From: a virus
Strand: one strand, 5' to 3'
DNA length: 64,000 nt
IMG/VR virus record: IMGVR_UViG_3300050821_005171
Coordinates: 1 to 64,000 of that record
The notes beneath the pieces were generated by a model. The model was not told where the DNA came from. It worked only from the letters and a program-made list of their open reading frames with translations, and ran no database searches. Shown here in pieces: positions 4,633-56,743 of the stretch (position 1 is its first letter; every line of letters begins with the position of its first letter). The translations under genes and the position numbers were made by a program.

Positions 4633-4667
4633 CGTAAAGGGTTACGTGGCCATGCGAAATCCATTTC
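4633..4667 (-). promoter_or_regulatory. GAAATNATTTC-type directional element, variant copy
   Basis: On the minus strand the core reads GAAATGGATTTC (4667-4656), one base longer than the other six copies, followed by GCATGG and a distal AACCCTTTACG block that matches the other copies. It begins 6 bases after the stop codon of the gene ending at 4673. It could serve the DUF4177-like gene and glycosyltransferase, although the distance (about 145 bases) is larger than at other copies. Confidence 0.45.
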
Positions 4668-4672
4668 GGAGA

Positions 4673-4942
4673 TCAGTCTTCAGGCCGCTCGTAGACGACT
4701 CCGTAGCCCAAGATCGTCTCAAAAACATTGATGATCGCAGGCCGACCGATCTTGTTGATGAAGGCGCAAAGAGCAGCCTGTGCCGTAGGTTCTTTGCATT
4801 CGTGCTTTTCTGCTCCGTCTTCGCTCCATTTGCACGGCTCTTCCGGATATTCAACCAGATTTCCGTTCTCGGATACGGCAGCGTAATATCGCTTCTTGGT
4901 AAATGACCTAATGGCAAGTCTCGCAGACTGTGGGCATGGCAA
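4673..4942 (-). CDS. Small paralogue A (EPCKW/FINKIGR family)
   Basis: About 89 residues, not recognised. The C-terminal two thirds match the neighbouring gene at 5181-5438 residue by residue: EPC(K/R)W, EKHEC(K/Q)EP, A.AFINKIGR.AI..VF, G.(V/T)YERP. This shows two diverged tandem copies. The start is uncertain: the frame opens with TTG at 4942, inside the loop of a 12-bp inverted repeat. There is no clear ribosome site. Function unknown. Confidence 0.6.
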   Translation of the reverse strand: MPCPQSARLAIRSFTKKRYYAAVSENGNLVEYPEEPCKWSEDGAEKHECKEPTAQAALCAFINKIGRPAIINVFETILGYGVVYERPED

Positions 4943-4972
4943 GCGTTAACGACACACTCACCATGCCCACAG
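4928..4972. repeat. 12-bp perfect inverted repeat
   Basis: CTGTGGGCATGG (4928-4939) and its exact complement CCATGCCCACAG (4961-4972) are separated by 21 bases. There is no T-run on either side, so it is not an intrinsic terminator. It encloses the presumed start of small paralogue A and could act as an operator or as an RNA hairpin over the start codon. Confidence 0.6.
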
Positions 4973-5180
4973 GTTCGCGAGACAAACGCTGCGGCTGTGC
5001 CCTGACGGCGACACCTTTTGGCACGCCCGCGTCCTAATGCTGGGTCGATTCGACTCGATTGCCGGCATTCGCGCACACGGGAAGTCGTCAGGATCAACCG
5101 CAGATTCGGCTCGCATGGCCGCCGTTTTTCTACCAACACAACTCGCACCCACTACCCCACCCCCCCCATTATCGCTCATA
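4943..5180. other. Gap between the two small paralogues
   Basis: Apart from the inverted repeat, this gap holds an eight-base G run on the minus strand (near 5161-5168) and a minus-strand open frame at 4958-5179 starting ATGAGC, directly after the stop of the gene at 5181. Its translation looks unlike its neighbours, so I leave it uncalled; a frameshift in the G run could hide a real small gene. Confidence 0.35.
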
Positions 5181-9808: not shown

Positions 9809-12800
9809 CTATCCTGCGATCGCAACCCTACCGTCTGGAGTCAGTGCTGGCAAGAATTGCGGAGCCGCACCGACAGAATACAGGTTTGAGATTTCGAGTG
9901 CGACCTGCTGAAGAATTCCGGTCTGGGCATCAAACACGTCGGCAACGAGTGTCCCGTTTTGCGCGATAGGGCTTACAGACGTCCCGTTGTAAATTGCATA
10001 TACCTGACTGTCTCCTGGACGGATCAACACGCTTTCAGCGGCCGTAGCAAATCCTGCCCACTGCACATTGAAGTCGTCGTCGATCTTTAGGATACCGGTC
10101 GGAGCACCGAGCGGGAATCTCGTTGGGGCCACGGAGAGGAATCCCTGTCCCGTTACGCCCTGCTGCGAGATCGCTGCCACAAAACTTCCACCAGTCACCC
10201 CAGAGTGGTCGATCATCATTAGATTGAGCGGCCCCGGAAGATTTGCAAACGTAATCGTATGCGTGAAATTCGGGCTCGTGCCAGCCGTCGAAACTGTCAC
10301 CTCTTCCAAACCGGGAAGGACTGCCAATGCACTTTGCACCGTCGGCCCATCGGCGTTGTACGCGAGCTGGCCTGTCGTTTGAGTGTTTCCGTTCGGATCG
10401 ACAAGGCTGATCGTATATGTACCCGCAGTTGGCGTCCCGGTAACTGTCAGCGTCTGGATCGGATACCCCTGAAACTGTAAGAGGCTGATCCCCGTACCGA
10501 CGCCGATGAAGTTGACAGTGATCTCGCCGTTCGCCAGGGTCACATTGTTTCCCTGATTTACGAAGCTGAACGAGTTTGTGACAGTGATCGATCCCATGCC
10601 AGGAAAGGCCCGCAGTGCAGTCTGGATTTGGGCCGCTGTCGCGTTGTAGAGCAAGATCGAAGTCGTGTGAGAGACCCCGCTTTTGTCGACCCACTGGATC
10701 GTATATCCGAGCTTAGCCGAGCCCTGATGCAAGATTGCTGGCGTGAATGTCCCGCCTGTCGTGCCACTTGTGACCGAGATCACCGGCAGCGGACCGGGCA
10801 CGTTTACGAACGTGATTGTGTGTACAAAATTCGGGCTGGTTCCACTTGACGATACCTGAGTGCCAATAAACGCGACACCAAGTGCCTGGATCGCACTCTG
10901 CACTTGAGCCGCCACTGCGCTAAATCCGAGCGGCGTCGTCGTGAAACTGTTGCTGCTCGCGTCGGTGACGGTGATCGTATAGGTGCCAGCCGTAGGAGTC
11001 CCGCTCACAGTCAGGCTTTGCGTCGGGTACGGGCCTCCCATATTCTGGCAATCGCCGCTGATCGTGATTAGCTGAACTTCGACTGATCCTGGTTGCAGCG
11101 TCGACACCGTGAACGTCCCGCCGGTCGTAGAGTTATTCACCGTCATCAAATGCAGAATCGGTCCGCCAAGATTAGTGAACGTGATCGTGTGCGTAAAATT
11201 TGGCGATGTTCCGCTCGTAAGCACCACGAAGTTGGCCATCGCTGGAATAGCCTGGAGCGCGGCCTGCACATCGCCCTGGGTCGCGTTGTAGTTAAGCGTT
11301 GATGTTGTGTGCGGATTTCCTTGCTGATCGGTCCAGCTAATCGTGTACGTGCCACTCGTAGGGGTCCCAGTGATGGCTATTCTCTGGATGGCGTCAACGC
11401 CAGGGGTCGCCACACTGACGGCAAACGTAGCTCCAATCTCTGCCGTGCTGTTGACCACGGTCATTGCATTGATCGTCTGGCCTTCCAGGCCGTAGAACAC
11501 GATCCGATGGCTGAAATTAGGGCTCGTGCCGCGAGTAATCACCACCAAGTTCGGAAGCCCGGTCATAGCCCGCAGCGCAGTCTGGAGGTCAGATTGAGTG
11601 GCGTTGAAATGCAGCGGAGGCGTAGAGACCGGTTGATTTAGCGTGTTAACCCAATCTACGGTATAAGTCCCGAACGTAGGAAACAGCGCCATTGCGATGT
11701 CTTGCATCGGTGGCGCTGGCTTTGTGGCATCCGTGCCGACAACGTAAAGCATCCCATCGCTGCCCACGCAGAATGGCGAGTTCTGCCCGATCGTTAGCGG
11801 CTGGACAGTCACCGTGACAATCGACTGAGGAAAGCTGCCCGGATTGATTACATTCACAAAAAACCCTACGTTCATAGTGCTTTCGGCAATCTGAATCGCA
11901 GGGATTGGCCCTCCCATGTTCACAAACGAAAGCGTGTGGTTTAGCTCTACAGTCGATCCTCCGACCACTCCGGATGTGGTGACGACGGTTACCGCAGAGA
12001 AGCCGGACACCGCTTGGATCGCAGCTTGCACCGTAGCCTGATCGGCGTTGTAAATCAGAGGATCGGTCTCACCTGTGTTTCCAAGCCTATCAAACAGGGT
12101 AATCCGATAGCTCCCGCTAGGGGGGCCTGTGAGCCCAAAGAACGACACAATGAGCAATTGTGTCGCCGTATTGCCGCCGGTTACGGCTCCCACCGATACC
12201 GTAGCGCCCAGCATCGTGCTGGTCGCCGATCCAGCCGGAAACGCACCATGCTGATCGATGTAGGTGACGACGTGCTGCGTGGTTTGAATTAGCACATGGC
12301 CAACACCCGACACGGGAGAAATGCTCGGAGTTTGGAGCGTCGTGGATGCGACCGTGAACACAGAGAAGATGCCGCCCAGCGCCTGGATTGCGTCCTGCAC
12401 CTCCTGCTGTGTTGCGTTCCATTGAAGCGGGCTGGCAACGAATGGGGTGCTGGTTTGGTCGCGTAGCGTGAGTGTCCAGGTCCCAGTAGCTGCCAGCGTC
12501 GGGTTAGTCAGAGCATCGCCGATTGCTAGAAACCCTCCACTCTTGGTCGCCAGTGGCATGCAGTCCGGCCACATCCATGCATTGGTCTCTTCTGTGAATT
12601 CACCTGCTGGCTGAATCGACCAATAATTTCCGGCCGTCGTGCTCGGAGCTGGGACTGGCAAGGTTGTCTGTCCACGCGACGAAAAAATGATTCCGGATGT
12701 CGTGGTCGAATCGACCGTAATGGGCCCAGTCCCTGGAAATCTCCATACCGCGTAGAACTTAGAGCCCGTCTTGTAAACGCTCCCGCTCGATGCCCCAGTA

Positions 12801-20147: not shown

Positions 20148-20699
20148 CTACATGACTCCGGCCAGGAACAACGTCCAGGCAATGTCTTCGGTACCGCTGT
20201 GCTGAAGCCGCAGAATGTTCGATGAGTTGTTGGCGACTGGCCATCCAGCCAGCCTGTTCGTCATGAAGATGTGGTCGCCGGCTCCGCAGGTTAGTTGGCA
20301 GTCGACATTCCCATTAAACGGGGCATCCCAAGCGTGCCCGGCGCTTCCGGCTCCGCCCACGAGCAGGACTGCATCCGGGTTTAGAACGAAGCCGCCCGAG
20401 CCGTTAGGGGTTCCGTTATTTTGAATGAACAGCATCTTGATCGTGGCGAAGTCAATGACGTCCTCAAAGACGTCCTGAAGCACCCCCCAGAGATTGAGGT
20501 CCGTGATCGGCGATCCGGCCGTCACGACACCTTCTCCCTGATAAGTCATGTTGGCCTGGGCCAGAACGCCACTGTTTCCCTGCGACAGCGTGCATGAGGC
20601 GCTGAGCCTCCCAGCGTTCTGCAACGTCCCGATCAGGGGAATCTTGTTGAAGTTCCACCCGATCGACAGGCCGTGCGTCACCCTGAGAGATGTCGTCAT
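20148..20699 (-). CDS. Major tail protein candidate
   Basis: 183 residues, beta-rich with GLSIGWNFNKIPLIGTLQNAGRLSASCTLSQG and a C-terminal strand region, the look of a tube subunit. It is the first gene after an intrinsic terminator and a GAAATNATTTC element, an arrangement that would give it its own strong transcription, as expected for an abundant virion protein. Identity as tube subunit is inferred from position and size. Confidence 0.55.
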   Translation of the reverse strand: MTTSLRVTHGLSIGWNFNKIPLIGTLQNAGRLSASCTLSQGNSGVLAQANMTYQGEGVVTAGSPITDLNLWGVLQDVFEDVIDFATIKMLFIQNNGTPNGSGGFVLNPDAVLLVGGAGSAGHAWDAPFNGNVDCQLTCGAGDHIFMTNRLAGWPVANNSSNILRLQHSGTEDIAWTLFLAGVM

Positions 20700-20724
20700 G
20701 TCGCGCTAGTCCGGAAGCCTTATG

Positions 20725-20759
20725 CCGCAACGGTTTAGGTTCTGTTACGAAATCATTTC
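20725..20759 (-). promoter_or_regulatory. GAAATNATTTC directional element
   Basis: Minus-strand core GAAATGATTTC (20759-20749) followed by GTAACAGAACC and a TAAACCGTT block. The core ends 49 bases upstream of the tail gene start at 20699 and directly after the terminator, so it sits exactly where a promoter is expected. Confidence 0.6.
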
Positions 20760-20767
20760 TCAAAACG

Positions 20768-20805
20768 AAAAAAGCCGGGGCAGGAATTGATATTCCCGAC
20801 CCGGC
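20768..20805 (-). terminator. Intrinsic terminator
   Basis: On the minus strand a GC-rich stem (GCCGGGTCGGGAA pairing with TTCCTGCCCCGGC, 20805-20774) is followed by six T residues. It ends the neck-gene transcript below the gene at 20853. Confidence 0.85.
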
Positions 20806-20852
20806 CGCACTATCCGCGATGGACGTGAACCGATATCGACACTGCACAGGCG

Positions 20853-22054: not shown

Positions 22055-22741
22055 TTAAATCTCGTAATCTGGGCCACTGGGAAGATTGGCCGGGAACTGA
22101 GCGCTGACACTCACGGCACCCGGTGCGACACCCTTGCCGAGCGGGGTCGCCATGATCCGCATGATAGCATCCTGCTCTTCGCTCAGGGTACGCCGAAGGA
22201 ACGATCGCTGGAGGATCGGCTTGCGTCTGGCAAATGTTCGGAGCAGATAGAGCCTGCCGGCGATCGTCACGATTCCGGCCCGTCTCATCAAGGCCCTGTT
22301 GCTGTTGCCCTTCTTGATTCGCCTTCCGCCCTTACCGGGACGCCGAACGCTTTCCATGATCCGAGCCGCGTCCGCAGCGCTAATCGGGATCGTCATGGCC
22401 TTCTTCTTAGTGGGCCGCATGTCGGCCCCAGTGGTGCCGACCTCCTGCCACAGCCCATGCGGAGAGTTAGTGCCAACGATGCCCGAGAAGTTCGTTTTGT
22501 CTAACTGGACGAACATTCGCCTAATAATGTCGCCACTGACCGCCCTGGGATAATTTCCCGGGGCCGACGGCGCTTCGACTGGAGACTGCCCCTGGCTGAC
22601 GTTCTCAATCACCTTCGTGCGGAGATGCTCACAGACTCTCTGTACCCGGTTATTGACCTCGGTTTTGAGAGCCCGTGTGAATTTTTCAGCACTCCAGGTG
22701 AACTTTACGTTGCTGATAATTTGCACAGAGACATCCGCCAT
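22055..22741 (-). CDS. HK97 gp10-like neck protein
   Basis: 228 residues. The N-terminal helix (VNNRVQRVCEHLRTKVIENV) followed by PVEAPSAPGNYPRAVSGDIIRRM and VGTNSPHGLWQEVGT matches the gp10/tail-completion family, in which tyrosine or glutamate at this position packs in the neck ring. The C-terminal half is very basic. It overlaps the upstream glycosyltransferase by 37 bases. Confidence 0.75.
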   Translation of the reverse strand: MADVSVQIISNVKFTWSAEKFTRALKTEVNNRVQRVCEHLRTKVIENVSQGQSPVEAPSAPGNYPRAVSGDIIRRMFVQLDKTNFSGIVGTNSPHGLWQEVGTTGADMRPTKKKAMTIPISAADAARIMESVRRPGKGGRRIKKGNSNRALMRRAGIVTIAGRLYLLRTFARRKPILQRSFLRRTLSEEQDAIMRIMATPLGKGVAPGAVSVSAQFPANLPSGPDYEI

Positions 22742-23478
22742 TCCTGATGCACGATCATGTACGGCCTTCCGAATGGATCAACGTAATCGCCCATCGCGTC
22801 CTTGATGGCCTGGACCCCATATCGGACACCCTCTCCGGTCAGACACAGGTCGGATATCGCTGGGTGGTGGACGTTTTTTCCGAATCCGCACTTCCAGGCC
22901 AGGAAGTTGGCCACGGCTTGATCGGTGTATGTTCGCGAGCAGTTGGCCGTATACGTGAGCAGCGTTTCGTAAAACGCGATAAGGTTCCACTTTGAGCCGA
23001 TGTGCGTCCCGCCGTTGACAACATCTCTGGGCAACAAGTCTCGCCAATCGTGCGGCCTGAACTTCTCCTGATCCTCCCTGTTAAATTGCGAATCGGCGTG
23101 CGTCATTCCTTCCGAGACGAGGTGCAGGCCCTTCATGACCGGGATGTCGACCTGAAACGTAACGTCGCACGAGTCCGTGTGAATGACGGTCTCGTACTCG
23201 CACTTACGCATGAAATCGAGCCGGGCCATATAGCAATCCAGCGCAAATCGGTTCGATTCGCGATCTGGAATGACCTTCTTTTCCCGCTTGAGAATGTGGA
23301 CCCCGGCCCCGTTCAGCATCGTCTCGAACCATCCTGGCAGCTCATTGGTGGCGACGACGTGGTCGCAATCCGTCAGGTTTTGGAGCGACTCGACGTAGCG
23401 CTCCAGACCCTCCCGATGACTGTCGCACCAGTGCGAGCCATGTGCTCCGGCCAAGGTGCATTTCCTATTCATCGCCAT
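22705..23478 (-). CDS. Glycosyltransferase-like protein in the neck operon
   Basis: 257 residues. The order HTDSCDVTFQ (a DxD-like metal site, about residue 98-102), NGGTHIGSKWNLIAFYE and DQAVANFLAWKCG is characteristic of GT-A enzymes that transfer to proteins or glycans. It has a GAAATNATTTC element 42 bases upstream and sits between head completion and neck genes, away from the main glycosyltransferase cassette. Virion glycosylation during assembly is a plausible role. Confidence 0.65.
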   Translation of the reverse strand: MAMNRKCTLAGAHGSHWCDSHREGLERYVESLQNLTDCDHVVATNELPGWFETMLNGAGVHILKREKKVIPDRESNRFALDCYMARLDFMRKCEYETVIHTDSCDVTFQVDIPVMKGLHLVSEGMTHADSQFNREDQEKFRPHDWRDLLPRDVVNGGTHIGSKWNLIAFYETLLTYTANCSRTYTDQAVANFLAWKCGFGKNVHHPAISDLCLTGEGVRYGVQAIKDAMGDYVDPFGRPYMIVHQEWRMSLCKLSAT

Positions 23479-23495
23479 GCGCCGGGAGCCTTTTG

Positions 23496-23530
23496 TAGAA
23501 ACGATTTAAGTGCTATTGCGAAATGATTTC
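23496..23530 (-). promoter_or_regulatory. GAAATNATTTC directional element
   Basis: Minus-strand core GAAATCATTTC (23530-23520) followed by GCAATAGCAC, TTAAA and TCGTTTCTAC. It abuts the stop codon of the gene ending at 23531 and lies 42 bases upstream of the glycosyltransferase start. Confidence 0.6.
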
Positions 23531-23773
23531 TCAGGCGTCTCCGAGGTGCGAAACGGAAGTCGGATACCCTTCCCAGGCATGCGGAACTTTCTCGACGATT
23601 CTTCGGTCCAAGTGGGCCTGGGATTTCTTGGGGCTCCCTGGTTCGCAGATTGCGGGCACCTTCACCACCAGTCGGCCCCCTGCGGCCTTGACCTCGATCC
23701 CTTGGGCTCCGTGGTTTTGGAGCATGTGGGCTCGCAGCCTCTGGGCTGCCTGAATCAATCGTTCGTCTATCAT
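23531..23773 (-). CDS. Small protein of the neck operon
   Basis: 80 residues, starting MIDERLIQAAQRLRAHML, then a strand pair GIEVKAAGGRLVVKVPAI. Not recognised. An ATGA overlap with the head completion gene fixes its start and shows coexpression. It could be a small neck or regulatory protein. Confidence 0.6.
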   Translation of the reverse strand: MIDERLIQAAQRLRAHMLQNHGAQGIEVKAAGGRLVVKVPAICEPGSPKKSQAHLDRRIVEKVPHAWEGYPTSVSHLGDA

Positions 23774-34262: not shown

Positions 34263-34283
34263 CCCACCTTGCAAAAGTGTTGC

Positions 34284-34318
34284 GAAATCGTTTCGCAATA
34301 GAACGCAAGTATTTACAC
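34284..34318 (+). promoter_or_regulatory. GAAATNATTTC directional element
   Basis: Core GAAATCGTTTC (34284-34294) lies in the longest palindrome of the set, TTGCGAAATCGTTTCGCAA (34281-34299), followed by TAGAACGCAAGTATTTACA. It is 64 bases upstream of ATG 34358, the only gene before the next terminator. Confidence 0.65.
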
Positions 34319-34357
34319 AGCAATCGGTAACAAACAACGCGAAGGGACGAAATTAGC

Positions 34358-41286: not shown

Positions 41287-41289
41287 TCT

Positions 41290-41324
41290 GAAATGATTTC
41301 TGAATCGACACTAAGTCTTTGCTT
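41290..41324 (+). promoter_or_regulatory. GAAATNATTTC directional element
   Basis: Core GAAATGATTTC (41290-41300), beginning 4 bases after the amidotransferase stop, followed by TGAATCGACAC and TAAGTCTTTGC. It is 47 bases upstream of ATG 41348. Confidence 0.6.
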
Positions 41325-41347
41325 CATAACAACATAAGGTGACCGCG

Positions 41348-42004
41348 ATGGATCGTCATGGGCTCAGTGAGCGGCCGGCAAAGATGCGTGGCCTGAAGGT
41401 TGACGAGCGGGGATACCCAGTCCCCTGGTTCGTTGCCGAGATCGACGGCAAGCCGGACTTTCGGGTGATGAACCCAGTCCGGTTCGTGAAGGCGATCAGT
41501 CAGAACCTGTGTTGGATTTGCGGCAATCTCATGGGCACCCAGAAGACGTTCGTCGCCGGACCGATGTGCGGCATCAACCGCACCAGCGCTGAGCCGCCGT
41601 GCCACTTGGAGTGTGCTCGCTACGCCGCGATCAACTGTCCGTTCCTCAACAACCCAAATGCGCTGCGTCGCGAAGATGACTTCACCAGGAACACGCTCGA
41701 AACACTGGGCGGCATCTCGATCCCACGCAATCCCGGAGTCGTCATGCTCTGGCAGACTAGGACTTGCTTCCCATTCGATGATGGCAACGGCAAGCCGCTG
41801 ATCTGCATGGGCGAGCCGTTCAATGTCGAGTGGTATCGAGAGAGTCGGCTTGCGACGCGAGAGGAGGTGATCGAGTCGGTAGAAAGCGGCTTTCCGGCGC
41901 TGGCGGCCATCGCCAGAACAGAGCCGGGTGCCATGCAGGACCTGCTGGACGCGCGTAAGCAGTTCGAGAAGTATCTTCCGGCTGCTACATCACCCAGCCA
42001 TTGA
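41348..42004 (+). CDS. Conserved Cys-rich phage protein
   Basis: 218 residues from ATG 41348 after AAGGTGA. LCWICGNLMG and FVAGPMCGINRTSAEPPCHLECARYAAINCPFL form a distinctive Cys/His cluster (about 55-100) that I recall from uncharacterised phage and actinobacterial proteins. Likely a metal-binding enzyme or processing factor. Single gene behind a GAAATNATTTC element, convergent with the head-tail connector gene (20-base overlap). Confidence 0.65.
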   Translation: MDRHGLSERPAKMRGLKVDERGYPVPWFVAEIDGKPDFRVMNPVRFVKAISQNLCWICGNLMGTQKTFVAGPMCGINRTSAEPPCHLECARYAAINCPFLNNPNALRREDDFTRNTLETLGGISIPRNPGVVMLWQTRTCFPFDDGNGKPLICMGEPFNVEWYRESRLATREEVIESVESGFPALAAIARTEPGAMQDLLDARKQFEKYLPAATSPSH

Positions 42005-48111: not shown

Positions 48112-48128
48112 GCTTGGTCCCTAAAACG

Positions 48129-48166
48129 AAAAAAGCCGCACTGGATAATTGGTAATCCAGAGCGGC
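48129..48166 (-). terminator. Intrinsic terminator
   Basis: Minus-strand stem GCCGC.CTGGAT with ATCCAG.GCGGC (48166-48135) followed by six T residues. The surrounding AAAACGAAAAAAGCCG is nearly identical to the terminator at 20.77 kb. It ends the two-gene unit at 48201-48750. Confidence 0.75.
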
Positions 48167-48200
48167 TTTAACGCTACCGCAGCGAAGAAGAATTCAGATT

Positions 48201-48416
48201 TTAGCCGAGTTGATCCTTATCGATCGTTACTCGGACGTTGCCGGCCTTTCCGCCGTTGATCGGAACCCGCACAGCAACAGCTCCGCGATGTCCCATTTTC
48301 ACAAATTCAACGATGGCTTCCGTGATTGCCTTGCGAGCCCTGGCTATCACCGCCTCGTTGTGCGAATCCACTTCATCATCGCGCAGGCAAGAAACCTGTT
48401 GGCTCACAAAATTCAC
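48201..48416 (-). CDS. Small hypothetical protein
   Basis: 71 residues from GTG 48416. A helix (NEAVIARARKAITEAIVEFVKM) and strands (GAVAVRVPINGG, NVRVTIDKD). Downstream of the 48463 gene and upstream of the terminator. Not recognised; small DNA-binding or virion accessory protein are both possible. Confidence 0.5.
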   Translation of the reverse strand: MNFVSQQVSCLRDDEVDSHNEAVIARARKAITEAIVEFVKMGHRGAVAVRVPINGGKAGNVRVTIDKDQLG

Positions 48417-48462
48417 CGCACGTCAAGAGTGTTGATTAAAAACTCAGGGAAGTCAATGGATT

Positions 48463-48750
48463 TCAGTCTCGAAGTTCAACCGGAGATTGTTCATACAACG
48501 ATTCGAGCCTGTCGTTTGCCCGCTCGATAATGGCTGCGGCCTGTGGTGTCAGGTCCTCTGGATAGCAGTCGACATGCCACACCCCATAGTCCCAAAACTT
48601 GCCGCCGAAGCCCAGATTTCCCTCAAATCGGTACTCAGTGCAGTCCTCGGCGACATTCAGGCAGAATGACTCGCGATCGTGCTCCTGAGCATCGCACTCC
48701 TCGACCAGGACGTTGTAAATTTCGTTGGCCCAGGCTCTGGGAATGTTCAT
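48463..48750 (-). CDS. Small hypothetical protein, element-controlled
   Basis: 95 residues from ATG 48750; longer frames would begin inside the GAAATNATTTC element. AWANEIYNVLVEECDAQEHDRESFCLNVAED, then GVWHVDCYPEDLTPQAAAIIERANDRLESLYEQ. Acidic with three Cys. Role unknown, but it opens its own transcription unit between protease and scaffold genes. Confidence 0.55.
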   Translation of the reverse strand: MNIPRAWANEIYNVLVEECDAQEHDRESFCLNVAEDCTEYRFEGNLGFGGKFWDYGVWHVDCYPEDLTPQAAAIIERANDRLESLYEQSPVELRD

Positions 48751-48784
48751 TTTTATTTGGTCGCGGTCGTCTGGAAGCGTTGGA

Positions 48785-48819
48785 ATGTAAAGACTTGAGA
48801 GCGACTCCGAAATCATTTC
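48785..48819 (-). promoter_or_regulatory. GAAATNATTTC directional element
   Basis: Minus-strand core GAAATGATTTC (48819-48809) within the perfect 17-base palindrome TCCGAAATNATTTCGGA (48822-48806), followed by TCAAGTCTTTACAT. It lies 59 bases upstream of ATG 48750 and starts right after the protease stop. Confidence 0.65.
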
Positions 48820-48822
48820 GGA

Positions 48823-49698
48823 CTACACAGCAGGACTGGCGAACCCATCTGCTCCGATCGAAAAACCACGGAATTTACCAGCCAGGATGGCTTGCCTGAC
48901 CTCTGGATCATAGACCCTAAACGCAGCGAGCCACGTTCCTTCAGAGATAGGCACGCCGTTCACGACGTAATTTGGCGACCTGACGATATAACTCTCGACG
49001 AGCGGGCAGGATCGCTTGGAGAGCACAACTTTGTGCATGACGCCTGCGCGCTGACAGTCCTCGACGTAGGCGTGTGCGGCCAGTTCGATCTCACCCGCAT
49101 CGATCATGTCACCCTGCTTATCAACACGGTCCGGAACGAGAATCGGGCCGAGAATGTACGTGTAGTCTGGCGTGCTGTCCACCTTAGTGAACTCTGACGT
49201 CATCTCGGCGTGTGCCGCAACCTGTCCCGAGCCAGATGCCGCAAGGGCCGGTGCTGCTTCAGGTGTTTCTGTTGCCACTTCGGTGTCCTCCGATTCTGAA
49301 TCCGGTAGTTCGGCTGGCACCTGTGCCAAGCCAGGGTCGATAGTGATCTGCCCATCAGGCCCCACGCACACCCAGGTAGACCCGGTCCCCCAGTCGTTCG
49401 GCGCCGCCGTGCCGACGCTGATCCTGTCCGGGTGGATGCCGAGCGCCTGGGCGACGCCCTGTTTCCAAGGATAGTCAAACTGAGCAGCATCACGATCCGG
49501 CTTGAGTACCACGCGGGCAATTTGCTGGGCACGATCGTAAAATAACTGTCCCTGGTTGCTCGGTCCGCAGATGACATTGATGCTCGCCAAAAGAGTGCGG
49601 GCTACGTCTTCGGAGTGAGACTTTCGCAGGATCGCTTTGTGGAGCTTGCGACGCACCTTGCGTTTCTGTCGATTGGCTTTGCGAATCTGATCCTGCAT
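48823..49698 (-). CDS. XkdF-type prohead protease
   Basis: 291 residues. The domain at about 165-290 has ILGPILVPDRVDKQGDMIDAGEIELAAHAY, MHKVVLSKRSCPLVESYIV, ISEGTWLAAFRVYD and GKFRGFSIGADG, which is the XkdF putative serine protease family. H and S/E positions of that family are recognisable but the catalytic set is not certain. The N-terminal 160 residues are an extra region with a short basic start. GGAGTAAACA precedes ATG. Confidence 0.8.
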   Translation of the reverse strand: MQDQIRKANRQKRKVRRKLHKAILRKSHSEDVARTLLASINVICGPSNQGQLFYDRAQQIARVVLKPDRDAAQFDYPWKQGVAQALGIHPDRISVGTAAPNDWGTGSTWVCVGPDGQITIDPGLAQVPAELPDSESEDTEVATETPEAAPALAASGSGQVAAHAEMTSEFTKVDSTPDYTYILGPILVPDRVDKQGDMIDAGEIELAAHAYVEDCQRAGVMHKVVLSKRSCPLVESYIVRSPNYVVNGVPISEGTWLAAFRVYDPEVRQAILAGKFRGFSIGADGFASPAV

Positions 49699-49701
49699 TG
49701 T

Positions 49702-52329
49702 TTACTCCAGCACCGAGGTCACTGTACACCGACAGTTCACCCGATTCTCAGGTGACAAGCCGGGGTCACCCGGAAATCTAGCTCGCTCACCATTACTGAG
49801 AATGAACAGGCGACCTTCTCCGACTTGGGTGCCGTCCTCGTCGAGCACCACCCAATGGCCACCACGCTGCACGATCATTTGGCCAGCGACTTCTAGGTGC
49901 ATCTCGCGAGTGTTTCTATCTCGGATTGCCACCCACTGACGGCCTTGAACTATGTTGCGAGCGATGAGGTCCTCCTGAACGCTCCACTGCCCTCCCGCAA
50001 GCGCTGCTGTGATTTCCGTTCTCGCAATTCTCTCGGCTCGCACCTCGTTGAATAGGTTCTCCGAGTCCTCTGAGATATAGGTGGCAGTGTCCTCTGGCGT
50101 CCAGCCTTCCTCGATCGCACGCAACAGGATGTCACGCAGTCTCTGTCGCGTCGTGCCTGTTACGTTTGACCGCCAATACTGAGCGTTAAAGTCCTGGGCG
50201 AGCGTGTGCCTAATGCGCTTCACCATAGACGGGGGTATCTCCATAAACCCCTTGATCCGTCGCGATGATTTCGGCTCAGCAACCTCAGCTTTCTCAAATC
50301 TGCTGACGTGTCTCAGTTCAAGCTGAGCGCCAATGATTGCCGCATCGAACATCGGTTCCACAGCGGCGTCGAGCAGCAGCGCCTCTGATCGGCCCGGAGG
50401 TAACAGCACCCAAGCACTGTCAGGATTCACGGCCTTGGTGAGTCTCACGGTGCCGTTATCACCAGCAGGGACTAGCGATTTTGTGATACCGGAGAACGTC
50501 TCATACCGACTAATCACTTCGGACTTCTGCGTCTCCAGCGCTCCCAGTAGTGCCTCAGTGAATGGAGCCACCTGGGACTCGTGGGCGGCCTCCCACTCTC
50601 GCACCAACCGGTCCACCTGCTCTGACTTGAACAGCCGGCTCCGCTTCTTGGGCTCGAACATGGGATGTCTAGGCTTGTTTGGATCGCGAGCGTATCGAGG
50701 TGGAGACTCGACTGGAACTTCTTCTTGATCTCCGCCGTAGCCAAGATCACCCCCCTTCGTCGAGCTAACGTCCCGCTCGCCAAATGCGATCAGGTCGTCT
50801 AGCGACTGGCGCTCAGGACCGAGGCGAACCTTCTCCTGCCGTCCAAACAGTGGCGGCTTGCCGTTGCTGGGCGCGTGGCCGTTTCCATTGGCCGAGCCGT
50901 TCTGGCCATCCTGCCCTGGGGCCTTGCCGCCGAACGTAGTTGGCTTGGATGGCGGGGTATGGTTCTGTGACGCACCATCCGGGCTCGGCTGTCCCTCTCC
51001 CGGTTTGGCAGCAGCCACGATCCCGGGTTGCGGTTCGCCTTCGTCGTTGCCCCACTCGGCCATCTCGGAGCTTTTGGGGACGATCGGGCGCTTGCCACCA
51101 CGGCGGAACGGTTTCTTCTGGAACAGTAACTCGCGAACCTCGTTCTGATCGAGGGCTGCCCCTTTGATGCCCAGGTCGACCGCTTTGTGGATCAGTTCGA
51201 TGTCGCTTGGGACCACTGGAGAGAAGTATGCGAAGCAGTCGCCCGCAGGTTCAAATTCGCGCACAAGGCTGCGGGTAATGTGGGCTGCGTTGTGCTTCAG
51301 GCGGGGGTTGATTGTGTTTTCTGCCCATGCCTGAATAGCTGATTCCATATTGCTCCGGTTCGCATCGGCCACAAGGCCCACGACAGCTTTTGGCACTCCA
51401 AAAGTTGCTAATGTCATGGTTAACGTCGTATCGAGTGAGGCGCGAAAATCCATTTCTTTCACGCTTGACTGTTGCATCATCGGCTTCAAACCAGAGTGTG
51501 TAATCATCGGCCGCCCGCTATGTTCGACGAGCGTGTGCTGATTGATGATCTGGTTGTAAACCTGCTTCACCTGTGGCTCTGTCAGTGTCTTATCAGTGCT
51601 GAAAATCTGCCCAGGTGGTGCATAGTTCTGGAACTGATTCCGCAGCCGATCGTAGATCGTCATCTCGATGTCGGTCGTGTTGCCGCAGTGCCACAACGTC
51701 GGCGAGCCGTAGAACCTGCCGTTGCCGTACCAATCCAGGTTCGGCTCCATGAACTCGACGATCTCACTGGCAGGCAGGATTACCGGACGCTCAGTGTGCC
51801 ACAGATTCCTGATCTCGTATGCCTCGACATACTGCGTTCGGCTGGGAATCACCCGCACGAACTGCGAGGGCATTGGCCACACTTCTTTGGTGGTGCCGAA
51901 CAAATTACGGCCCTTCCACCAATAGGCGTTGCCCGTGAGCATCTTCCAGCCCTCGGTGTAGAACCACAGGTCCCACTCCGTGAACCTGGGATTCACGTTG
52001 AAGAAGAGCTGGCACAGTGGGTGATTGGAGGGCAATGGCTCGACGACCGTACCCGACTTCTTCGGGATGCGGCGGAGCATCTTGATCTCTTGCATCGCCA
52101 TCTTGCGGGCAATGGCCCCGGAGGCGATGAACACCGAGTTGCGGTTGGCTCGCAGGAATGCGTTGCGGTCGATCAGCCACTCGGCGCGGGTGTGCCGGTG
52201 GACAGGGCCGACCATGATCTCGGCGAAGTCGGCTGTGGATTTTTCCACGCGGACAGGGCGAGCGTTCCGGCCGCTGAGGGTTTCGGCGCGGCTGAATGCA
52301 TGATCTAGTGTGGCGCTAAGCGTCGTCAT
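49702..52329 (-). CDS. Portal protein fused to MuF minor capsid domain
   Basis: 875 residues. Residues 1 to about 430 are an HK97-type portal (LPSNHPLCQLFFNVNPRFTEWDLWFYTEGWKMLTGNAYWW; MDFRASLDTTLTMTLATFGVPKAVVG). A Pro/Gly-rich linker follows, and from about 700 a MuF/SPP1 gp7-type domain: AERIARTEITAALAGGQW, WVAIRDRNTREMHLEVAGQ, FPGDPGLSPENRVNCRC. Usually these are two genes. ATG 52329 overlaps the upstream stop (TAATG). Confidence 0.85.
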   Translation of the reverse strand: MTTLSATLDHAFSRAETLSGRNARPVRVEKSTADFAEIMVGPVHRHTRAEWLIDRNAFLRANRNSVFIASGAIARKMAMQEIKMLRRIPKKSGTVVEPLPSNHPLCQLFFNVNPRFTEWDLWFYTEGWKMLTGNAYWWKGRNLFGTTKEVWPMPSQFVRVIPSRTQYVEAYEIRNLWHTERPVILPASEIVEFMEPNLDWYGNGRFYGSPTLWHCGNTTDIEMTIYDRLRNQFQNYAPPGQIFSTDKTLTEPQVKQVYNQIINQHTLVEHSGRPMITHSGLKPMMQQSSVKEMDFRASLDTTLTMTLATFGVPKAVVGLVADANRSNMESAIQAWAENTINPRLKHNAAHITRSLVREFEPAGDCFAYFSPVVPSDIELIHKAVDLGIKGAALDQNEVRELLFQKKPFRRGGKRPIVPKSSEMAEWGNDEGEPQPGIVAAAKPGEGQPSPDGASQNHTPPSKPTTFGGKAPGQDGQNGSANGNGHAPSNGKPPLFGRQEKVRLGPERQSLDDLIAFGERDVSSTKGGDLGYGGDQEEVPVESPPRYARDPNKPRHPMFEPKKRSRLFKSEQVDRLVREWEAAHESQVAPFTEALLGALETQKSEVISRYETFSGITKSLVPAGDNGTVRLTKAVNPDSAWVLLPPGRSEALLLDAAVEPMFDAAIIGAQLELRHVSRFEKAEVAEPKSSRRIKGFMEIPPSMVKRIRHTLAQDFNAQYWRSNVTGTTRQRLRDILLRAIEEGWTPEDTATYISEDSENLFNEVRAERIARTEITAALAGGQWSVQEDLIARNIVQGRQWVAIRDRNTREMHLEVAGQMIVQRGGHWVVLDEDGTQVGEGRLFILSNGERARFPGDPGLSPENRVNCRCTVTSVLE

Positions 52330-52664
52330 TAAGCGACATTCAGGTTAGGGCCACCCTGGGACGGCATCTGGATCGACGTAGGGCCGCTCTTGGGGGCACT
52401 GAGCAAGGCGATCTCAGCTTCCAGACGTTCCCGGTCACGGGCTAGGGCTAGTGAAAGCTGATCGACGGTGAGGCCCTGTACCTTGAGCTTCATGTTGGCC
52501 ACTTCCAGGTCAACAGACAGCTCTTTGATCCGAGCGGCATCACCCTCGGCCTTCTCGTCGAGAATGCTGATCCTGTCCTCGTAGCGCTGCTTGATCCGCT
52601 CGAATTCTTGGCGTTCGCGGCGTCGGCGCACGAAGCGGGCCAGACGATATAAGACCTTGAGCAT
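52329..52664 (-). CDS. Coiled-coil protein
   Basis: 111 residues: basic start (RLARFVRRRRERQEF) then a heptad coiled coil, with a disordered end. No family recognised. Immediately upstream of portal and coupled to it. Confidence 0.5.
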   Translation of the reverse strand: MLKVLYRLARFVRRRRERQEFERIKQRYEDRISILDEKAEGDAARIKELSVDLEVANMKLKVQGLTVDQLSLALARDRERLEAEIALLSAPKSGPTSIQMPSQGGPNLNVA

Positions 52665-52695
52665 CAGGACATTGTGATTGACGGGGCCTGATGCG

Positions 52696-52914
52696 TCAAC
52701 GCGAAGGGGCCGGATACTGGTGATCGTCGGATTGAACCAGCTTCACTTCAAGCTGCTCGACCTGTTCGGTGAGCTTCTTTTCGTCGTGGGCCAGCATGTT
52801 GATGTCGGCTTCATGGCCCTCGATCTCGGTGCGGCATTTGCGCAGCTTGCGGCGAGCCTCGATCAGTTTGGTGCGAATCTCATCTGACGAGTGTTTGGTG
52901 CCAATCTCGCTCAC
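52696..52914 (-). CDS. Small coiled-coil protein
   Basis: 72 residues from GTG 52914, overlapping the methyltransferase stop (GTGA). A coiled coil (ARRKLRKCRTEIEGHEADINMLAHDEKKLTEQVEQLEVKL) of unknown role. Could be a small scaffold or terminase-associated subunit, since no small terminase subunit is otherwise visible. Confidence 0.5.
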   Translation of the reverse strand: MSEIGTKHSSDEIRTKLIEARRKLRKCRTEIEGHEADINMLAHDEKKLTEQVEQLEVKLVQSDDHQYPAPSR

Positions 52915-53729
52915 TTTACAGCGCTCCGCTTCCTGCGTTTGCGGACCACTGGCACTATCGGGTCCTGGTTTCTTGCTGGGAACATGGCCCCCTTTGCGAT
53001 CCGCTCTTCGATCGACTTGCACGTCTCTTTCGAGATGTCGATCGTCGTACAGTTTCGGCCCAGCGCGTTGGCCACAACGATCGTTGTGCCAGAGCCACCA
53101 AACGGATCAAGAACGCGATCGCCTGGATTCGTATAGGCCAATATCAACCGGCGAAGATAGTTCTCTGGGAGCTGGTTCGGGTGCCCCTTGCGCCGCTCTT
53201 GGTTGTTGCCTTGGACACGTCCCCAGAATTCACCATCACTAGGTACTCCCCAGACTGTCCCAGGAAGCCGCATGCCGCCATTATCGTAGTCATCGATACG
53301 GCGGTCTCCGTAGATGGATGCCCGGTCGCTCGGGACGAGGACTGCTTCTGGATTCCAAGTGAAATCCTTGCTCTTTGCGAAGACAAGGCAGTGGGCATGG
53401 CCGTTGATCCAATTGCTGCGTCCGCATTGTCCGAAGCGGTAGTGCCAGAGAATCCAGGCGATTCGCTTCATGCTAAAGGTCACAGCATTCTGGACGTACT
53501 TGACGGCCAGCTCGTCGTTGCCGTGCAGGCACAGCACTCCGTCGTCAGATAGCGCGTCCCAGCAGGCGTAAATCCATTGCGCAGTAAAAGTATCGAAATC
53601 CGGGCGAGAATCCTTGTAGCCGATGTACGGGTGCCCGATGTTGAATGGCGGATCGGCGAAGATGAAATCGAACTTCCCAAGCGACGGGATTAGGTCGATG
53701 CAACTTCCGCAGAGGACTGTCGCTTGCAT
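52911..53729 (-). CDS. DNA (adenine-N6 or cytosine-N4) methyltransferase, beta class
   Basis: 272 residues. Motif IV DPPF is at 26-29 (FIFADPPFN) and motif I is near the end (LDPFGGSGTTIVVANALGRNC); this circular order defines the beta class. Target recognition lies between. It probably protects phage DNA against host restriction. GGAG precedes ATG 53729, 7 bases after the RHH gene stop, so it is coexpressed with that putative regulator. Confidence 0.9.
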   Translation of the reverse strand: MQATVLCGSCIDLIPSLGKFDFIFADPPFNIGHPYIGYKDSRPDFDTFTAQWIYACWDALSDDGVLCLHGNDELAVKYVQNAVTFSMKRIAWILWHYRFGQCGRSNWINGHAHCLVFAKSKDFTWNPEAVLVPSDRASIYGDRRIDDYDNGGMRLPGTVWGVPSDGEFWGRVQGNNQERRKGHPNQLPENYLRRLILAYTNPGDRVLDPFGGSGTTIVVANALGRNCTTIDISKETCKSIEERIAKGAMFPARNQDPIVPVVRKRRKRSAVK

Positions 53730-53735
53730 TGGCTC

Positions 53736-53936
53736 CTACTTCTTCGCGGATCGTTTGCGAGGCCCAGCCATCCGGTCCATCGCCTTGTCAAAATCCCGCA
53801 CAGCCATCTCGATGATGGCCGTCCTCGTCAGGCCCTTGTCTATCGCCCGGCGGTTCAGGATTTCCAGGCAGCCGGCCGAGAGTCTGTAGGTCGCGTGTTT
53901 TTTGCCCGACTCGCCGTTAGCGACAGCAGATTTCAT
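53736..53936 (-). CDS. Ribbon-helix-helix regulator
   Basis: 66 residues: YRLSAGCLEILNRRAIDKGLTRTAIIEMAVRDFDKAM is an Arc/CopG-like strand plus two helices. AAGGGTGAT precedes ATG. It is the first gene of the head operon and coupled to the methyltransferase; autoregulation at the promoter upstream is likely but unproven. Confidence 0.65.
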   Translation of the reverse strand: MKSAVANGESGKKHATYRLSAGCLEILNRRAIDKGLTRTAIIEMAVRDFDKAMDRMAGPRKRSAKK

Positions 53937-54139
53937 CGATCACCCTTGATGGTTCTATTTGCGTGCATCTACAGTGAGTCCTGTTGATAAGAGGCAAAGG
54001 GAGCTGAAGTTACGCTTCATTTGTGGTGCTACCTCGGCCCATTGCAGGCAGACGGACAAGTCACGTCCACCGCAAGCCGGGGCTGAGTGCTGGCAAGTGT
54101 CGTCGTAAACCAGCTCCCCGTTGCCTCTGTTAGATAGTC

Positions 54140-54168
54140 ATTGTGGCACATTGTGAGCACAAATGCAA
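54140..54168 (-). promoter_or_regulatory. Leftward promoter with GTGCTNACAAYGTGC site
   Basis: On the minus strand TTGCAT (54168-54163), 17-base spacer and CACAAT (54145-54140), with GTGCTCACAATGTGC at 54160-54146. It fires toward the RHH/methyltransferase/portal genes with a long leader of about 190 bases. The terminase ATG (54163) lies inside its -35 box on the other strand. Confidence 0.6.
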
Positions 54169-55923
54169 GACCCACTTGAGGAACTTAGGCACCTTAGCGA
54201 AGAAGAGCAGGCTCAACTAGCCGAATATGCTTGTGCAATTCAGGAGGCCCAGGGCGGGGACCCACGCAATTACGTGATGCTGCAATGGCCCGATCTGATT
54301 CTGGACACGTTCCAGTGGGACATGCTGCTGAGTCTGTTTGATCCAGCAATTCGCTCAACGTGGGTTAAGGGGAACACGGGATGTGGCAAGGGGGCCGCAT
54401 CGGCCATCGGCATCTGCGCGTACTACGACGTGTTCGAGGACGCAAAGATCGTCATTACGAGCAGTTCGGTTGAGCATGCGCTTCGCGTCATGTTCGCCGA
54501 AGTGGCAAAGTTCTACAAAATGGCCAAGTACCGACCCCCGGGAATAGTGCTCGCTGAATCTGTGCGGGATCACGAACAGCACAGAATTGATGTGGTGAAT
54601 CCTGAGAAGGACGAAGGTTTTTCCGGAGCACACGGAGAGCATCTCCTGATCGTGATCGACGAAGCAACGAGCTTCATCGACTCACGGTTTGCCCTGGCAA
54701 TGACGCAAGCCAAAAAGTTGCTGGCAATTGGGAATCCGCGAACGCTGGCTGGCGTCTATCGCATGGCCTTCGGTCGCATCGATCCCAACCGCACACATAC
54801 AGCAATGGGGCAACATGGACCACAGCGACTCATCAGCATTCCTGGATCAATTTGCATGAATGTTCGGGAGAAGCGATTGGCCTCTCCTGTTGGGCCTCCC
54901 GGCGGTATGGAGATCAGGGGCCGTAAGTTCGAGTACGGCGAGAGAATCCCAAGCGATTTCTATCAGGACGTGAAACCGATCATTCCAGGGCAAACGGCCT
55001 ACGACGAATATCTCGCACTGCTAAATGATCCTGACCCGTTCGTCGTGAAGGTGTTTTGTAAAGCGGAGTTTCCGGACGAAGATCCATATACCCAGTTAAT
55101 CTTGGCGTCGTGGCTCGATCGGCACTGCAAGTATTGGGGCGAATCGGTTAAAGCGTATCGTGACGGAACTGGAGATATCGATGACCTTCTTCCGGTCACG
55201 GTTTTTGGATTGGACCCTGCCAGTACGCTGACCGGAGATGCCACGGTTTTGGCAGCCGGAGGGCCGAAAGGAATTCGCTGCATATACACGCGAAAATTCG
55301 CAAAAACGTCACAGGTGGCCGCCTGGGCAATCGAGCAAATAGAAAGGGACTTTGGAATCAGCCTTGAGTCCGGCTGCTTTCCAATTTCGATCGACTGTGA
55401 TGGTCTCGGTCGTGGGGTGGTCGATTACATGACGGACAAGGGAGTCGCCGTTATCCCCATCATGGGCAACAGCACACCGCTCTACGACATCAAAAAGTAC
55501 GGGAATAGGCGTACTGAGATTTACTCAGAGCTTGCTAAGCGACTTAGCCCTGATGACCTTTTCGCCGATCGGCCATACGCCATCCCTGAAGACGGACTGC
55601 TCAAGGAAGAGCTGTGCGTGGCTGAGAAAGAATTCATCGGCAACGATGGGCTGCGTTATAGGCTGACACCGAAGGATAATCGCGGAAACAAGAACATCAG
55701 AGGCATCAAACAGCGCATCGGACGATCGCCAGACCGCTCAGACGCAGTCGCCCTGTGCCACGCAGCACTGATGGAATGGGAAGAGTCGCAAGGGATTTGC
55801 CATCAATTAGACCCCTCCGCATTTGAGCCTGATATGTCCTGGTCGGACGAAGAGTCCAAGAGGCCCCAGATCGTCGAAGATTGGTGGAAACCTACCACTG
55901 ACAAGAACAAGCCAATCAAGTAA
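54163..55923 (+). CDS. terL: Terminase large subunit
   Basis: 586 residues. Walker A-like GNTGCGKGA (70-78) is a variant of GxxGxGK(S/T), Walker B is LLIVIDEA (161-168), and the C-terminal nuclease domain has VFGLDPA (about 346-352) and IDCDGLGRGV with further Asp at PDRSDAV near the end. The ATPase pumps DNA and the nuclease cuts concatemers. It is transcribed opposite to the portal operon. The start is ATG 54163. Confidence 0.85.
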   Translation: MQDPLEELRHLSEEEQAQLAEYACAIQEAQGGDPRNYVMLQWPDLILDTFQWDMLLSLFDPAIRSTWVKGNTGCGKGAASAIGICAYYDVFEDAKIVITSSSVEHALRVMFAEVAKFYKMAKYRPPGIVLAESVRDHEQHRIDVVNPEKDEGFSGAHGEHLLIVIDEATSFIDSRFALAMTQAKKLLAIGNPRTLAGVYRMAFGRIDPNRTHTAMGQHGPQRLISIPGSICMNVREKRLASPVGPPGGMEIRGRKFEYGERIPSDFYQDVKPIIPGQTAYDEYLALLNDPDPFVVKVFCKAEFPDEDPYTQLILASWLDRHCKYWGESVKAYRDGTGDIDDLLPVTVFGLDPASTLTGDATVLAAGGPKGIRCIYTRKFAKTSQVAAWAIEQIERDFGISLESGCFPISIDCDGLGRGVVDYMTDKGVAVIPIMGNSTPLYDIKKYGNRRTEIYSELAKRLSPDDLFADRPYAIPEDGLLKEELCVAEKEFIGNDGLRYRLTPKDNRGNKNIRGIKQRIGRSPDRSDAVALCHAALMEWEESQGICHQLDPSAFEPDMSWSDEESKRPQIVEDWWKPTTDKNKPIK

Positions 55924-55993
55924 AATGCGGGCAGAAAGGCGGCCGCTATTCCGCCTCCTGCCCTGTCCACAACATGCTTTAAGGGAGCACGTC

Positions 55994-56743
55994 ATGTCTG
56001 GAAATCAGTCTACAGGTCGCGCCCGAAGAGAACCACTCGTAAAAGTTGGCGACCGATATGAACGGCTCGTTGTGACGTCCGTATCGCACATGAAAACGAG
56101 TAGCGGGTGGAGATGGTTTGCATCAAGCATTTGTGATTGCGGGAATGCAAATACATCACGCGACGATTCTTTAGTTAGTGGTAAGGTCCGTAGTTGCGGA
56201 TGCCTACAGCGAGAATCTGCCGGAGCGATAAATCGCAGCCACATGCTCTCGAACAGCCCGACATATTCAACTTGGGCCAACATGCTAACGCGATGCACAA
56301 ACCCCAAGTTTGAAGACTGGGACCGATACGGCGGACGGGGAATTAGGGTGTGTCAGGCTTGGTTTTCATTCGAGGCATTCTTGGCAGACATGGGCGAGCG
56401 CCCGTCTCCGTCCCACAGCCTCGATCGCTATCCCGATCAGAACGGCAACTACGAACCGGGAAACTGCCGCTGGGCTACTGGAAAAGAACAATGCCGAAAT
56501 CGGCGTGACAACAATCTCATCACCTTTAACGGAGAAACGAAAACTGCCGCAGAATGGTCCGAAATCACCGGAATCACGCCATCTACACTAAGGGCACGAA
56601 CCAGGGCCGGATGGCCTGCCGATAAGTGCCTCACGACTCCAGTCCAGAGTGCGGGATCACGGAGCAGCGGAAAAGGGACCCCGCTATCTGTCTCCGAAAT
56701 GATTTCGCAACAGCACCCAACTCAAGCACCGGCAACAAATTAA
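55994..56743 (+). CDS. HNH-family endonuclease (AP2/HNH homing-type)
   Basis: 249 residues. CDCGNANTSRDDSLVSGKVRSCGCL precedes THE SPTYSTWANMLTRCTNPKF, DRYGGRGIRVCQAWFSFEAFLADMGERP, HSLDRYPDQNGNYEPGNCRWAT and EQCRNRR motifs that define this widespread phage family. AAGGGAGCAC precedes ATG. The last 40 residues have no pattern and read through the next GAAATNATTTC element, suggesting insertion beside that promoter. Confidence 0.8.
   Translation: MSGNQSTGRARREPLVKVGDRYERLVVTSVSHMKTSSGWRWFASSICDCGNANTSRDDSLVSGKVRSCGCLQRESAGAINRSHMLSNSPTYSTWANMLTRCTNPKFEDWDRYGGRGIRVCQAWFSFEAFLADMGERPSPSHSLDRYPDQNGNYEPGNCRWATGKEQCRNRRDNNLITFNGETKTAAEWSEITGITPSTLRARTRAGWPADKCLTTPVQSAGSRSSGKGTPLSVSEMISQQHPTQAPATN
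56696..56730 (+). promoter_or_regulatory. GAAATNATTTC directional element
   Basis: Core GAAATGATTTC (56696-56706) followed by GCAACAGCAC and CAACTC. It is inside the last codons of the HNH gene and 51 bases upstream of ATG 56758. Confidence 0.55.

What the first reader, a model, noticed from the sequence alone, without database searches (positions are those of the whole stretch)
4633..56730. Seven copies of a directional element with core GAAATNATTTC upstream of selected genes
Cores at 34284, 41290 and 56696 (plus) and 20749, 23520, 48809 and 4656 (minus). On the coding strand each continues asymmetrically as GC/G-A-A-Y-A-G-N-A-C, then AA and often GTCTTTAC, and four reach 15 or more palindromic bases. 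Each lies 42-64 bases before a start codon (about 145 for the variant at 4656) and two directly follow terminators or stop codons. The targets include a likely major tail gene, single-gene units and a glycosyltransferase. A phage-specific late promoter or activator site is the simplest reading.
Basis: partly seen in the sequence, partly recalled or inferred. Interest (0 to 1): 0.8.

Follow-up and report, generated by a model that had tools for sequence, protein, structure and literature searches.

The report
Repeated 62-base phage promoter-like element
An uncultured phage carries eight scattered copies of the same 62-base directional DNA signal, most of them directly in front of a gene; it most likely works as a phage-specific kind of promoter, and no clear copy turned up outside this phage in the searches made.

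Summary
Six sites in the window share an ungapped 62-base element: T(-2), dyad GAAATNRTTTC (1-11), A14, G18, AA24-25, a looser TCnTT 27-31, AA39-40, A53 and CGCGA 55-59 (GGCGA in one). Its pattern matches 6 times, against 0 in 100 shuffles. A profile from the six finds an unseen copy outside the window at 76531 (32.7 bits; best of 20 random sequences 17.7). Scored on columns 15-59 alone, without the dyad, each of seven copies ranks among the top 7-8 of 157,312 positions. The 4656 copy is a degenerate eighth. Six copies have an ATG at columns 53-75. One copy sits directly behind a strong terminator and makes up 62 of the 68 bases left before the next gene. At two places that could be tested, copy and gene are absent from syntenic relatives. 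The element has no RNA structure and no TTGnnn/TAnnnT pair, although the phage has five sigma70-type sites of another kind. Best reading: a phage-specific promoter needing a phage factor (an encoded sigma factor or a dyad-binding activator). 'Late' is unproven. Searches of public collections gave only chance-like matches.

The parts
34281..34342 (+). class II element, upstream of 34358-34717 (119 aa); a strong terminator follows that gene
   Evidence: hairpin before the T-run near 34802, -28.0 kcal/mol (not in the list)
41287..41348 (+). class II element filling the whole gap between the stop at 41286 and the ATG at 41348
56693..56754 (+). class II element, overlaps the 3' end of a 249-aa ORF (55994-56743) and precedes 56758-57084
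20701..20762 (-). class II element between an intrinsic terminator and gene 20148-20699
23472..23533 (-). class II element starting on the stop codon of 23531-23773, upstream of 22705-23478
48761..48822 (-). class II element right after the stop of the protease gene, upstream of ORF 48463-48750
4608..4670 (-). degenerate class II copy with one extra base in the dyad
   Evidence: 17.0 bits (best random sequence 17.7); 17.5 bits on columns 15-59, next place 8.5
20768..20806 (-). intrinsic terminator (hairpin and T-run) directly upstream of the 20749 element
   Evidence: fold -23.5 kcal/mol, z -2.82, 4 of 200 shuffles as good; not in the list of the consensus scan
48463..48750 (-). 95-aa ORF behind element 48809, absent at this place in relatives
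22705..23478 (-). 257-aa ORF behind element 23520; no homolog in four relatives or in phage records
34358..34717 (+). 119-aa gene, single-gene unit behind element 34284
41348..42004 (+). 218-aa gene, partial homologs in Rhizobium and Mycobacterium phages
56758..57084 (+). 108-aa gene behind element 56696
20148..20699 (-). 183-aa gene behind element 20749, phrog_22694 (unknown function)

Best explanation
The 62-base element is a phage-specific promoter ('class II'). Its dyad TNNGAAATNATTTCNNA is bound by a phage-directed factor, either the phage's own sigma factor or a dyad-binding activator, which brings RNA polymerase to a core that lacks sigma70 hexamers. Two geometries fit: (1) start at the conserved AA39-40, dyad over the -35 region, AA-TC-TT near -10, and a leader of about 20-35 bases; (2) start at A59 in CGCGA, dyad near -53 like an upstream activator site. 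It serves single or added genes rather than the main operons. Shown here: the element, its register, orientation, placement, the terminator before one copy and the two insertions. Inferred: that it starts transcription, which factor binds it, and when.
For: Pattern 6 vs 0 in 100 shuffles; independent copy at 76531; leave-one-out without the dyad recovers 7 of 7 good copies; a scan of 113 upstream regions without prior motif puts it first (17.33 vs maxima 15.8, 15.8, 16.2 in 3 shuffled sets). The 20749 copy lies behind a -23.5 kcal/mol terminator and is 62 of the 68 bases left before gene 20148. The 34284 gene is followed by a -28.0 kcal/mol hairpin with a T-run. At 41290 the gap between genes is exactly the element. 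RNA fold z-scores of the 8 copies, 0.17, 2.04, 1.95, 1.09, 0.94, -0.88, 0.42, 0.56, speak against RNA structure. 0 of 7 copies hold TTGnnn-16-18-TAnnnT, while 4 of 5 class I sites hold it at 15-18 spacing and the fifth nearly so. The record encodes a sigma factor at 63961-64806 with regions 2 and 4.
Against: No transcript data exist here. The sigma factor keeps the RpoD-like WWIRQ and RERVRQ motifs (sequence; contact roles recalled), which would predict TTG/TAnnnT rather than this element. The fixed CGCGA at the start codon is not explained by geometry 1. In 3 copies (41290, 56696, 23520) Shine-Dalgarno-like bases lie within the element (read by eye), which speaks against geometry 2 there. The 76531 copy is antisense inside the first codons of a predicted gene, and 4656 has only a 12-codon ORF at the usual distance. 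The 20749 copy heads a run of further genes on the same strand, so not every target is a single gene. No relative carries the element, so conservation between phages could not be tested. The consensus scans did not list the two terminators used as evidence; they rest on folding.
Confidence: 0.57

Rival explanations
1. A start-associated element acting on translation: an mRNA leader read by a phage or host factor near the start codon, as proposed for cluster K SAS.
For: In the six good sense copies CGCGA (GGCGA at 23520) touches the ATG or lies up to 15 bases before it; several copies lie inside gene runs where read-through could supply mRNA.
Against: No RNA structure; CGCGA is not a general start feature (within 20 bases of 7 of 113 starts, 4 of them class II, 3.2 expected); Shine-Dalgarno match no better than in other genes (mean 3.50, n = 6, against 3.79, n = 107); a terminator lies right before the 20749 copy; the dyad points to DNA recognition.
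Confidence: 0.14
2. An operator for a phage repressor or a host regulator.
For: The core GAAATNATTTC equals the middle 11 bases of the E. coli IclR operator TGGAAATNATTTCCA (PMC8222616 and PMC13273656, passages). A small HTH protein at 75370-75603 matches HTH_3 and HTH_IclR, both below cut-off.
Against: The flanking G/C of the IclR operator is absent: column 0 is never G and column 12 never C in 7 copies; no place in the record matches that operator with fewer than 2 mismatches; no IclR C-terminal domain; an operator alone does not need 45 conserved bases on one side, and no sigma70 pair underlies it in 7 of 7 copies examined.
Confidence: 0.12
3. A mobile cassette end or recombination site: each [element + gene] unit moved as a module and the sequence marks the joint.
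For: Dyads begin 0-5 bases after an upstream stop codon in 4 of 8 copies; [48809 + 48463] and [23520 + 22705] are missing at the syntenic places in relatives; a recombinase-like gene lies next to 76531.
Against: Orientation and distance follow gene starts in 6 of 8; copies are only 51% identical outside the dyad, with sharply invariant positions, as expected of a bound signal rather than of recent copies. The downstream ends of the units were not compared for a shared joint.
Confidence: 0.12

Closest known systems
Start-Associated Sequences and Extended SAS of cluster K mycobacteriophages (PMC3203893, passages)
   Same: Dispersed, directional, in front of a subset of genes; inverted repeats upstream plus a conserved part at the start codon; upstream stop codon sometimes within it; a rare copy on the opposite strand; function unproven.
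   Different: SAS is a 13-base GGGATAGGAGCCC with a Shine-Dalgarno core; ESAS repeats are 17 bases with variable spacer. Here one rigid 62-base block with an 11-base core dyad and CGCGA; the SAS sequence is absent (0 matches at 1 mismatch, 1 at 2).
P2 late promoters activated by Ogr (PMC3931495, passages)
   Same: A dyad marking several transcription units of one phage, read with a phage activator.
   Different: TGT-N12-ACA is absent from 7 of 7 copies examined; no Ogr family match above cut-off (best E 0.083).
E. coli IclR operator (PMC8222616, passages)
   Same: Same 11-base core GAAATNATTTC.
   Different: Flanking bases differ, and the long one-sided extension has no counterpart.
Moron (accessory) loci of prophages (PMC7067206, passages)
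   Same: Extra genes inserted in a conserved gene order; here with a shared element, and in one unit a terminator.
   Different: One shared, non-sigma70 element on several such units of one phage is not described in the passages seen.

Membership tests
Cluster K SAS/ESAS | 13-base GGGATAGGAGCCC at the ribosome-binding site | tested here: not met
   0 matches at 1 mismatch, 1 at 2
Cluster K SAS/ESAS | inverted repeat upstream of a start-associated conserved part, on a subset of genes | tested here: met
P2-type late promoter | TGT-N12-ACA | tested here: not met
   none in 7 copies examined
P2-type late promoter | Ogr/Delta zinc-finger activator encoded | tested here: inconclusive
   PF04606 best E 0.083 (59659-59925), below cut-off; other zinc ribbons score alike
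Host sigma70 promoter | TTGnnn, 16-18 bases, TAnnnT | tested here: not met
   0 of 7 copies; class I sites at 15-18 spacing 4 of 5 strict, 5 of 5 with C allowed at the first -10 base
Single-subunit phage RNA polymerase promoter | such a polymerase encoded | tested here: inconclusive
   no PF00940 match, but the family rang in none of the control genomes and the record may be a fragment
IclR operator | TGGAAATNATTTCCA | tested here: not met
   best 2 mismatches; flanking columns
Phage sigma-factor promoter | sigma factor encoded by the phage | tested here: met
Phage sigma-factor promoter | that sigma factor starts transcription at the element | not testable with these tools
   needs in vitro transcription
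Moron unit | gene absent at the same place in relatives | tested here: met
   2 of 2 places where synteny allowed a test; the other 6 copies could not be tested
Moron unit | expressed in lysogeny, of use to the host | not testable with these tools
   no host or expression data

The most novel reading that the evidence does not exclude
The phage keeps an 'accessory regulon': unrelated added genes each arrive or are kept with one ready-made 62-base promoter, read by a phage sigma factor or activator of new specificity whose upstream box is a palindrome, so that scattered genes switch on together, apart from the host-type class I promoters.
Probability: 0.25. Interest if true: 0.72.

Novelty: new variant of a known kind. 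Interest (0 to 1): 0.52.

Why it matters
It gives a compact, testable case of a phage that marks scattered genes, some of them clear additions, with one common signal distinct from its host-type promoters. If confirmed, it would show how newly gained phage genes are put under common control and offer a search rule for such genes in phages without close relatives. It also parallels the still unexplained SAS/ESAS elements.

Tried and rejected
Looser pattern in viral contigs: 10 loci with one match each, 34-49% GC, best profile score 17.2, which is no worse than the 4656 copy's 17.0; judged chance because each stretch held has a single match and nothing else in common with this phage was seen. 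Stricter patterns in viral contigs: 0; the second matches all 7 good copies locally. The collection may leave out this phage and its nearest kin, as the tool states. Genome contigs pattern: one match in a Peribacillus contig, 39% GC in the stretch held, 22.4 bits on the 63-column profile; judged chance. blastn of one copy (20749) in phages and one copy (48809) in plasmids: no match. Stretches of about 2.7 kb around homologs of the 41348 gene in two Rhizobium phages and one Mycobacterium phage carry no element. Rfam at gathering score: none in the window. Sigma70 consensus scans: 5, 8, 8 and 4 found against shuffle means 7.1, 7.3, 5.0 and 9.1 (window 1-3500 not scanned). Dropped on checking: my reading that the capsid operon has its own sigma70-like promoter at the same place as in relatives. 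L012 and L014 have TAGACA-17-TARACT there; this phage shows no such pair at that place by eye or in the scan. Also dropped: calling the ORF 55994-56743 an HNH gene as a fact; Pfam gives no match.

Literature: SAS, late promoter and leaderless (no paper), phage sigma and palindrome, Ogr, moron, mobile promoters, the core letters. No listing showed this element; most subscription papers are not held. Passages only were seen of PMC3203893, PMC12699233, PMC5780444, PMC3931495, PMC7067206, PMC8222616 and PMC13273656; of PMC4331800 only the listing.
Full report
What was checked. The window is bases 1-64,000 of a 78,700-base virus record; the rest was fetched as L001. No end repeats are reported, so the record may be a fragment. 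No near relative was found among phage records: megablast of 45,000-64,000 gives nothing, tblastn of the terminase gives nothing, capsid and portal proteins give only distant hits.

The element. The six window sites align without a gap from two bases before the dyad to a CGCGA (GGCGA at 23520) at columns 55-59. Numbering the dyad 1-11, the columns that never vary in seven copies (the six plus 76531) are T-2, G1, A2, A3, T5, T8, T9, T10, C11, A14, G18, A24, A25, A39, G56, C57 and G58; columns 4, 7, 15, 27, 28, 30, 31, 40, 53, 55 and 59 agree in six of seven. The 4656 copy fits once one extra base in its dyad is allowed for.

Is it chance? The dyad alone would be weak evidence. The long pattern has 6 matches against 0 in 100 shuffles. 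A profile from the six, run over the whole record, finds one more copy at 76531-76576 at 32.7 bits against a best of 17.7 in 20 first-order random sequences; 4656 follows at 17.0, which is not above that control. Leave-one-out on columns 15-59, which the choice of sites by their dyad did not touch, places each of seven copies among the top 7 or 8 of 157,312 positions, a count that includes the copy itself and the six training copies. On the same columns 4656 scores 17.5 and the next place 8.5. A scan without prior motif over 113 upstream regions also ranks the element first.

Where it lies. In the six good sense copies an ATG follows on the same strand at column 59 (41290), 61 (20749), 63 (56696), 53 or 59 (23520), 70 (48809) and 75 (34284). 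By my own gene map, 1.29% of all positions and strands lie 58-75 bases before a same-strand start; this range was chosen after seeing the sites, and 23520 meets it only with its second ATG. The median gap between same-strand genes is 16.5 bases (106 gaps), whereas at 41290 the gap is the element itself. Dyads of four copies begin 0-5 bases after a stop codon. The element at 20749 begins 5 bases after the T-run of a terminator (-23.5 kcal/mol, z -2.82, 4 of 200 shuffles as good). The 34284 gene is followed by a -28.0 kcal/mol hairpin with a T-run near 34802. The consensus scans did not list these two. Copy 56696 overlaps the end of a 249-aa ORF, and 76531 lies antisense over the first codons of a predicted gene.

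Comparison with relatives. Four contigs with a capsid protein 50-54% identical were found. None of the stretches held, 48.8 kb together and all around the head genes, holds the element (best 33-column profile score 5.5); the average density here would give about five, but the head region here has only one to three, so the absence is suggestive, not strong. They share gene order. A homolog of 48201 follows the protease directly in L014 (E 2.6e-6) and L016 (1.8e-4), and weakly in L012 (0.017), but here [element 48809 + 95-aa ORF] stands between. Homologs of 22055 follow 23770 directly in L012 and L015, but here 23531 and [element 23520 + 257-aa ORF] stand between. So at both places that could be tested the element comes with an added gene; the other six copies could not be tested.

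A second class as yardstick. The unbiased scan also showed CTTGnnn...GTGCTNACAAYGTGC-YACAAT at 35858+, 36716+, 62281-, 58257- and 54134- (38.8-47.9 bits with a profile trained on these same five; next place 8.7; best of 10 random sequences 14.6). These look like sigma70-type promoters with an embedded operator. None coincides with a class II copy. Seven class II copies examined have no TTGnnn/TAnnnT, TGT-N12-ACA, sigma54 or T4-late box. So the phage appears to use at least two kinds of signal.

Mechanism. RNA folding gives z-scores from -0.88 to 2.04 in the 8 copies, so no structure beyond shuffles, and CGCGA is no general start feature of this phage, which lowers a translational role. The terminator before 20749 calls for a promoter in the element unless it is read through. 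The record encodes a 281-aa sigma factor with regions 2 and 4 and little between them; host-type promoters first and phage-factor promoters later is a common phage scheme (recalled). Yet its DNA-contact motifs look RpoD-like (recalled roles), so a separate dyad-binding activator is about as likely. I could not choose between start sites near column 39-40 and near 59.

Comparison with the known. The anatomy is closest to cluster K SAS/ESAS, whose function is also unproven (PMC3203893, passages; PMC12699233, passages, still asks for experimental verification). The dyad equals the centre of the IclR operator (PMC8222616, passages), but flanks differ and no IclR C-terminal domain is encoded. Membership in none of these is claimed.

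Verdict. A real, well-defined cis-element family in one phage; promoter reading 0.57 (lowered by 0.01 on checking, since the capsid-promoter argument fell away); not shown to be late; only chance-like matches elsewhere in the searches made.

Noticed in passing
35858-35899 +, 36716-36757 +, 62281-62322 -, 58257-58298 -, 54134-54175 -: Second motif family CTTGnnn..GTGCTNACAAYGTGC-YACAAT: sigma70-type promoters with a 15-base operator between the hexamers; in three the second hexamer ends 6-10 bases before an ATG (possible leaderless genes).
   Followed up: partly
L001 961-1806 (record 63961-64806, -): Phage-encoded sigma factor with regions 2 and 4, a short linker in place of most of region 3, and basic ends.
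   Followed up: partly
61697-61764: Two perfect tandem copies of a 34-base sequence at the 3' end of gene 61756-62280.
   Followed up: no
63018-63681 and L001 2041-3053 (-): Four small proteins end in a common tag RAFF(D/E)xP, perhaps a docking peptide.
   Followed up: no
9809-15463 -: 1884-aa tail-type protein gene with several diverged internal repeats (families D1-D4).
   Followed up: no
48100-48180 -: A strong terminator (z -3.70) right before the scaffold gene start, inside the head operon; L012 and L014 have a promoter-like TAGACA-17-TARACT in the matching stretch, and L012 and L016 a hairpin with a T-run near it. This suggests attenuation or antitermination.
   Followed up: partly
24237-42004, mostly +: A block of about 17.8 kb lies between head and tail genes that are adjacent in relatives L012 and L015.
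   Followed up: partly
55994-56743 +: A 249-aa ORF that looks like a homing-endonuclease type by eye but has no Pfam match; its last codons are encoded by the class II element itself.
   Followed up: partly
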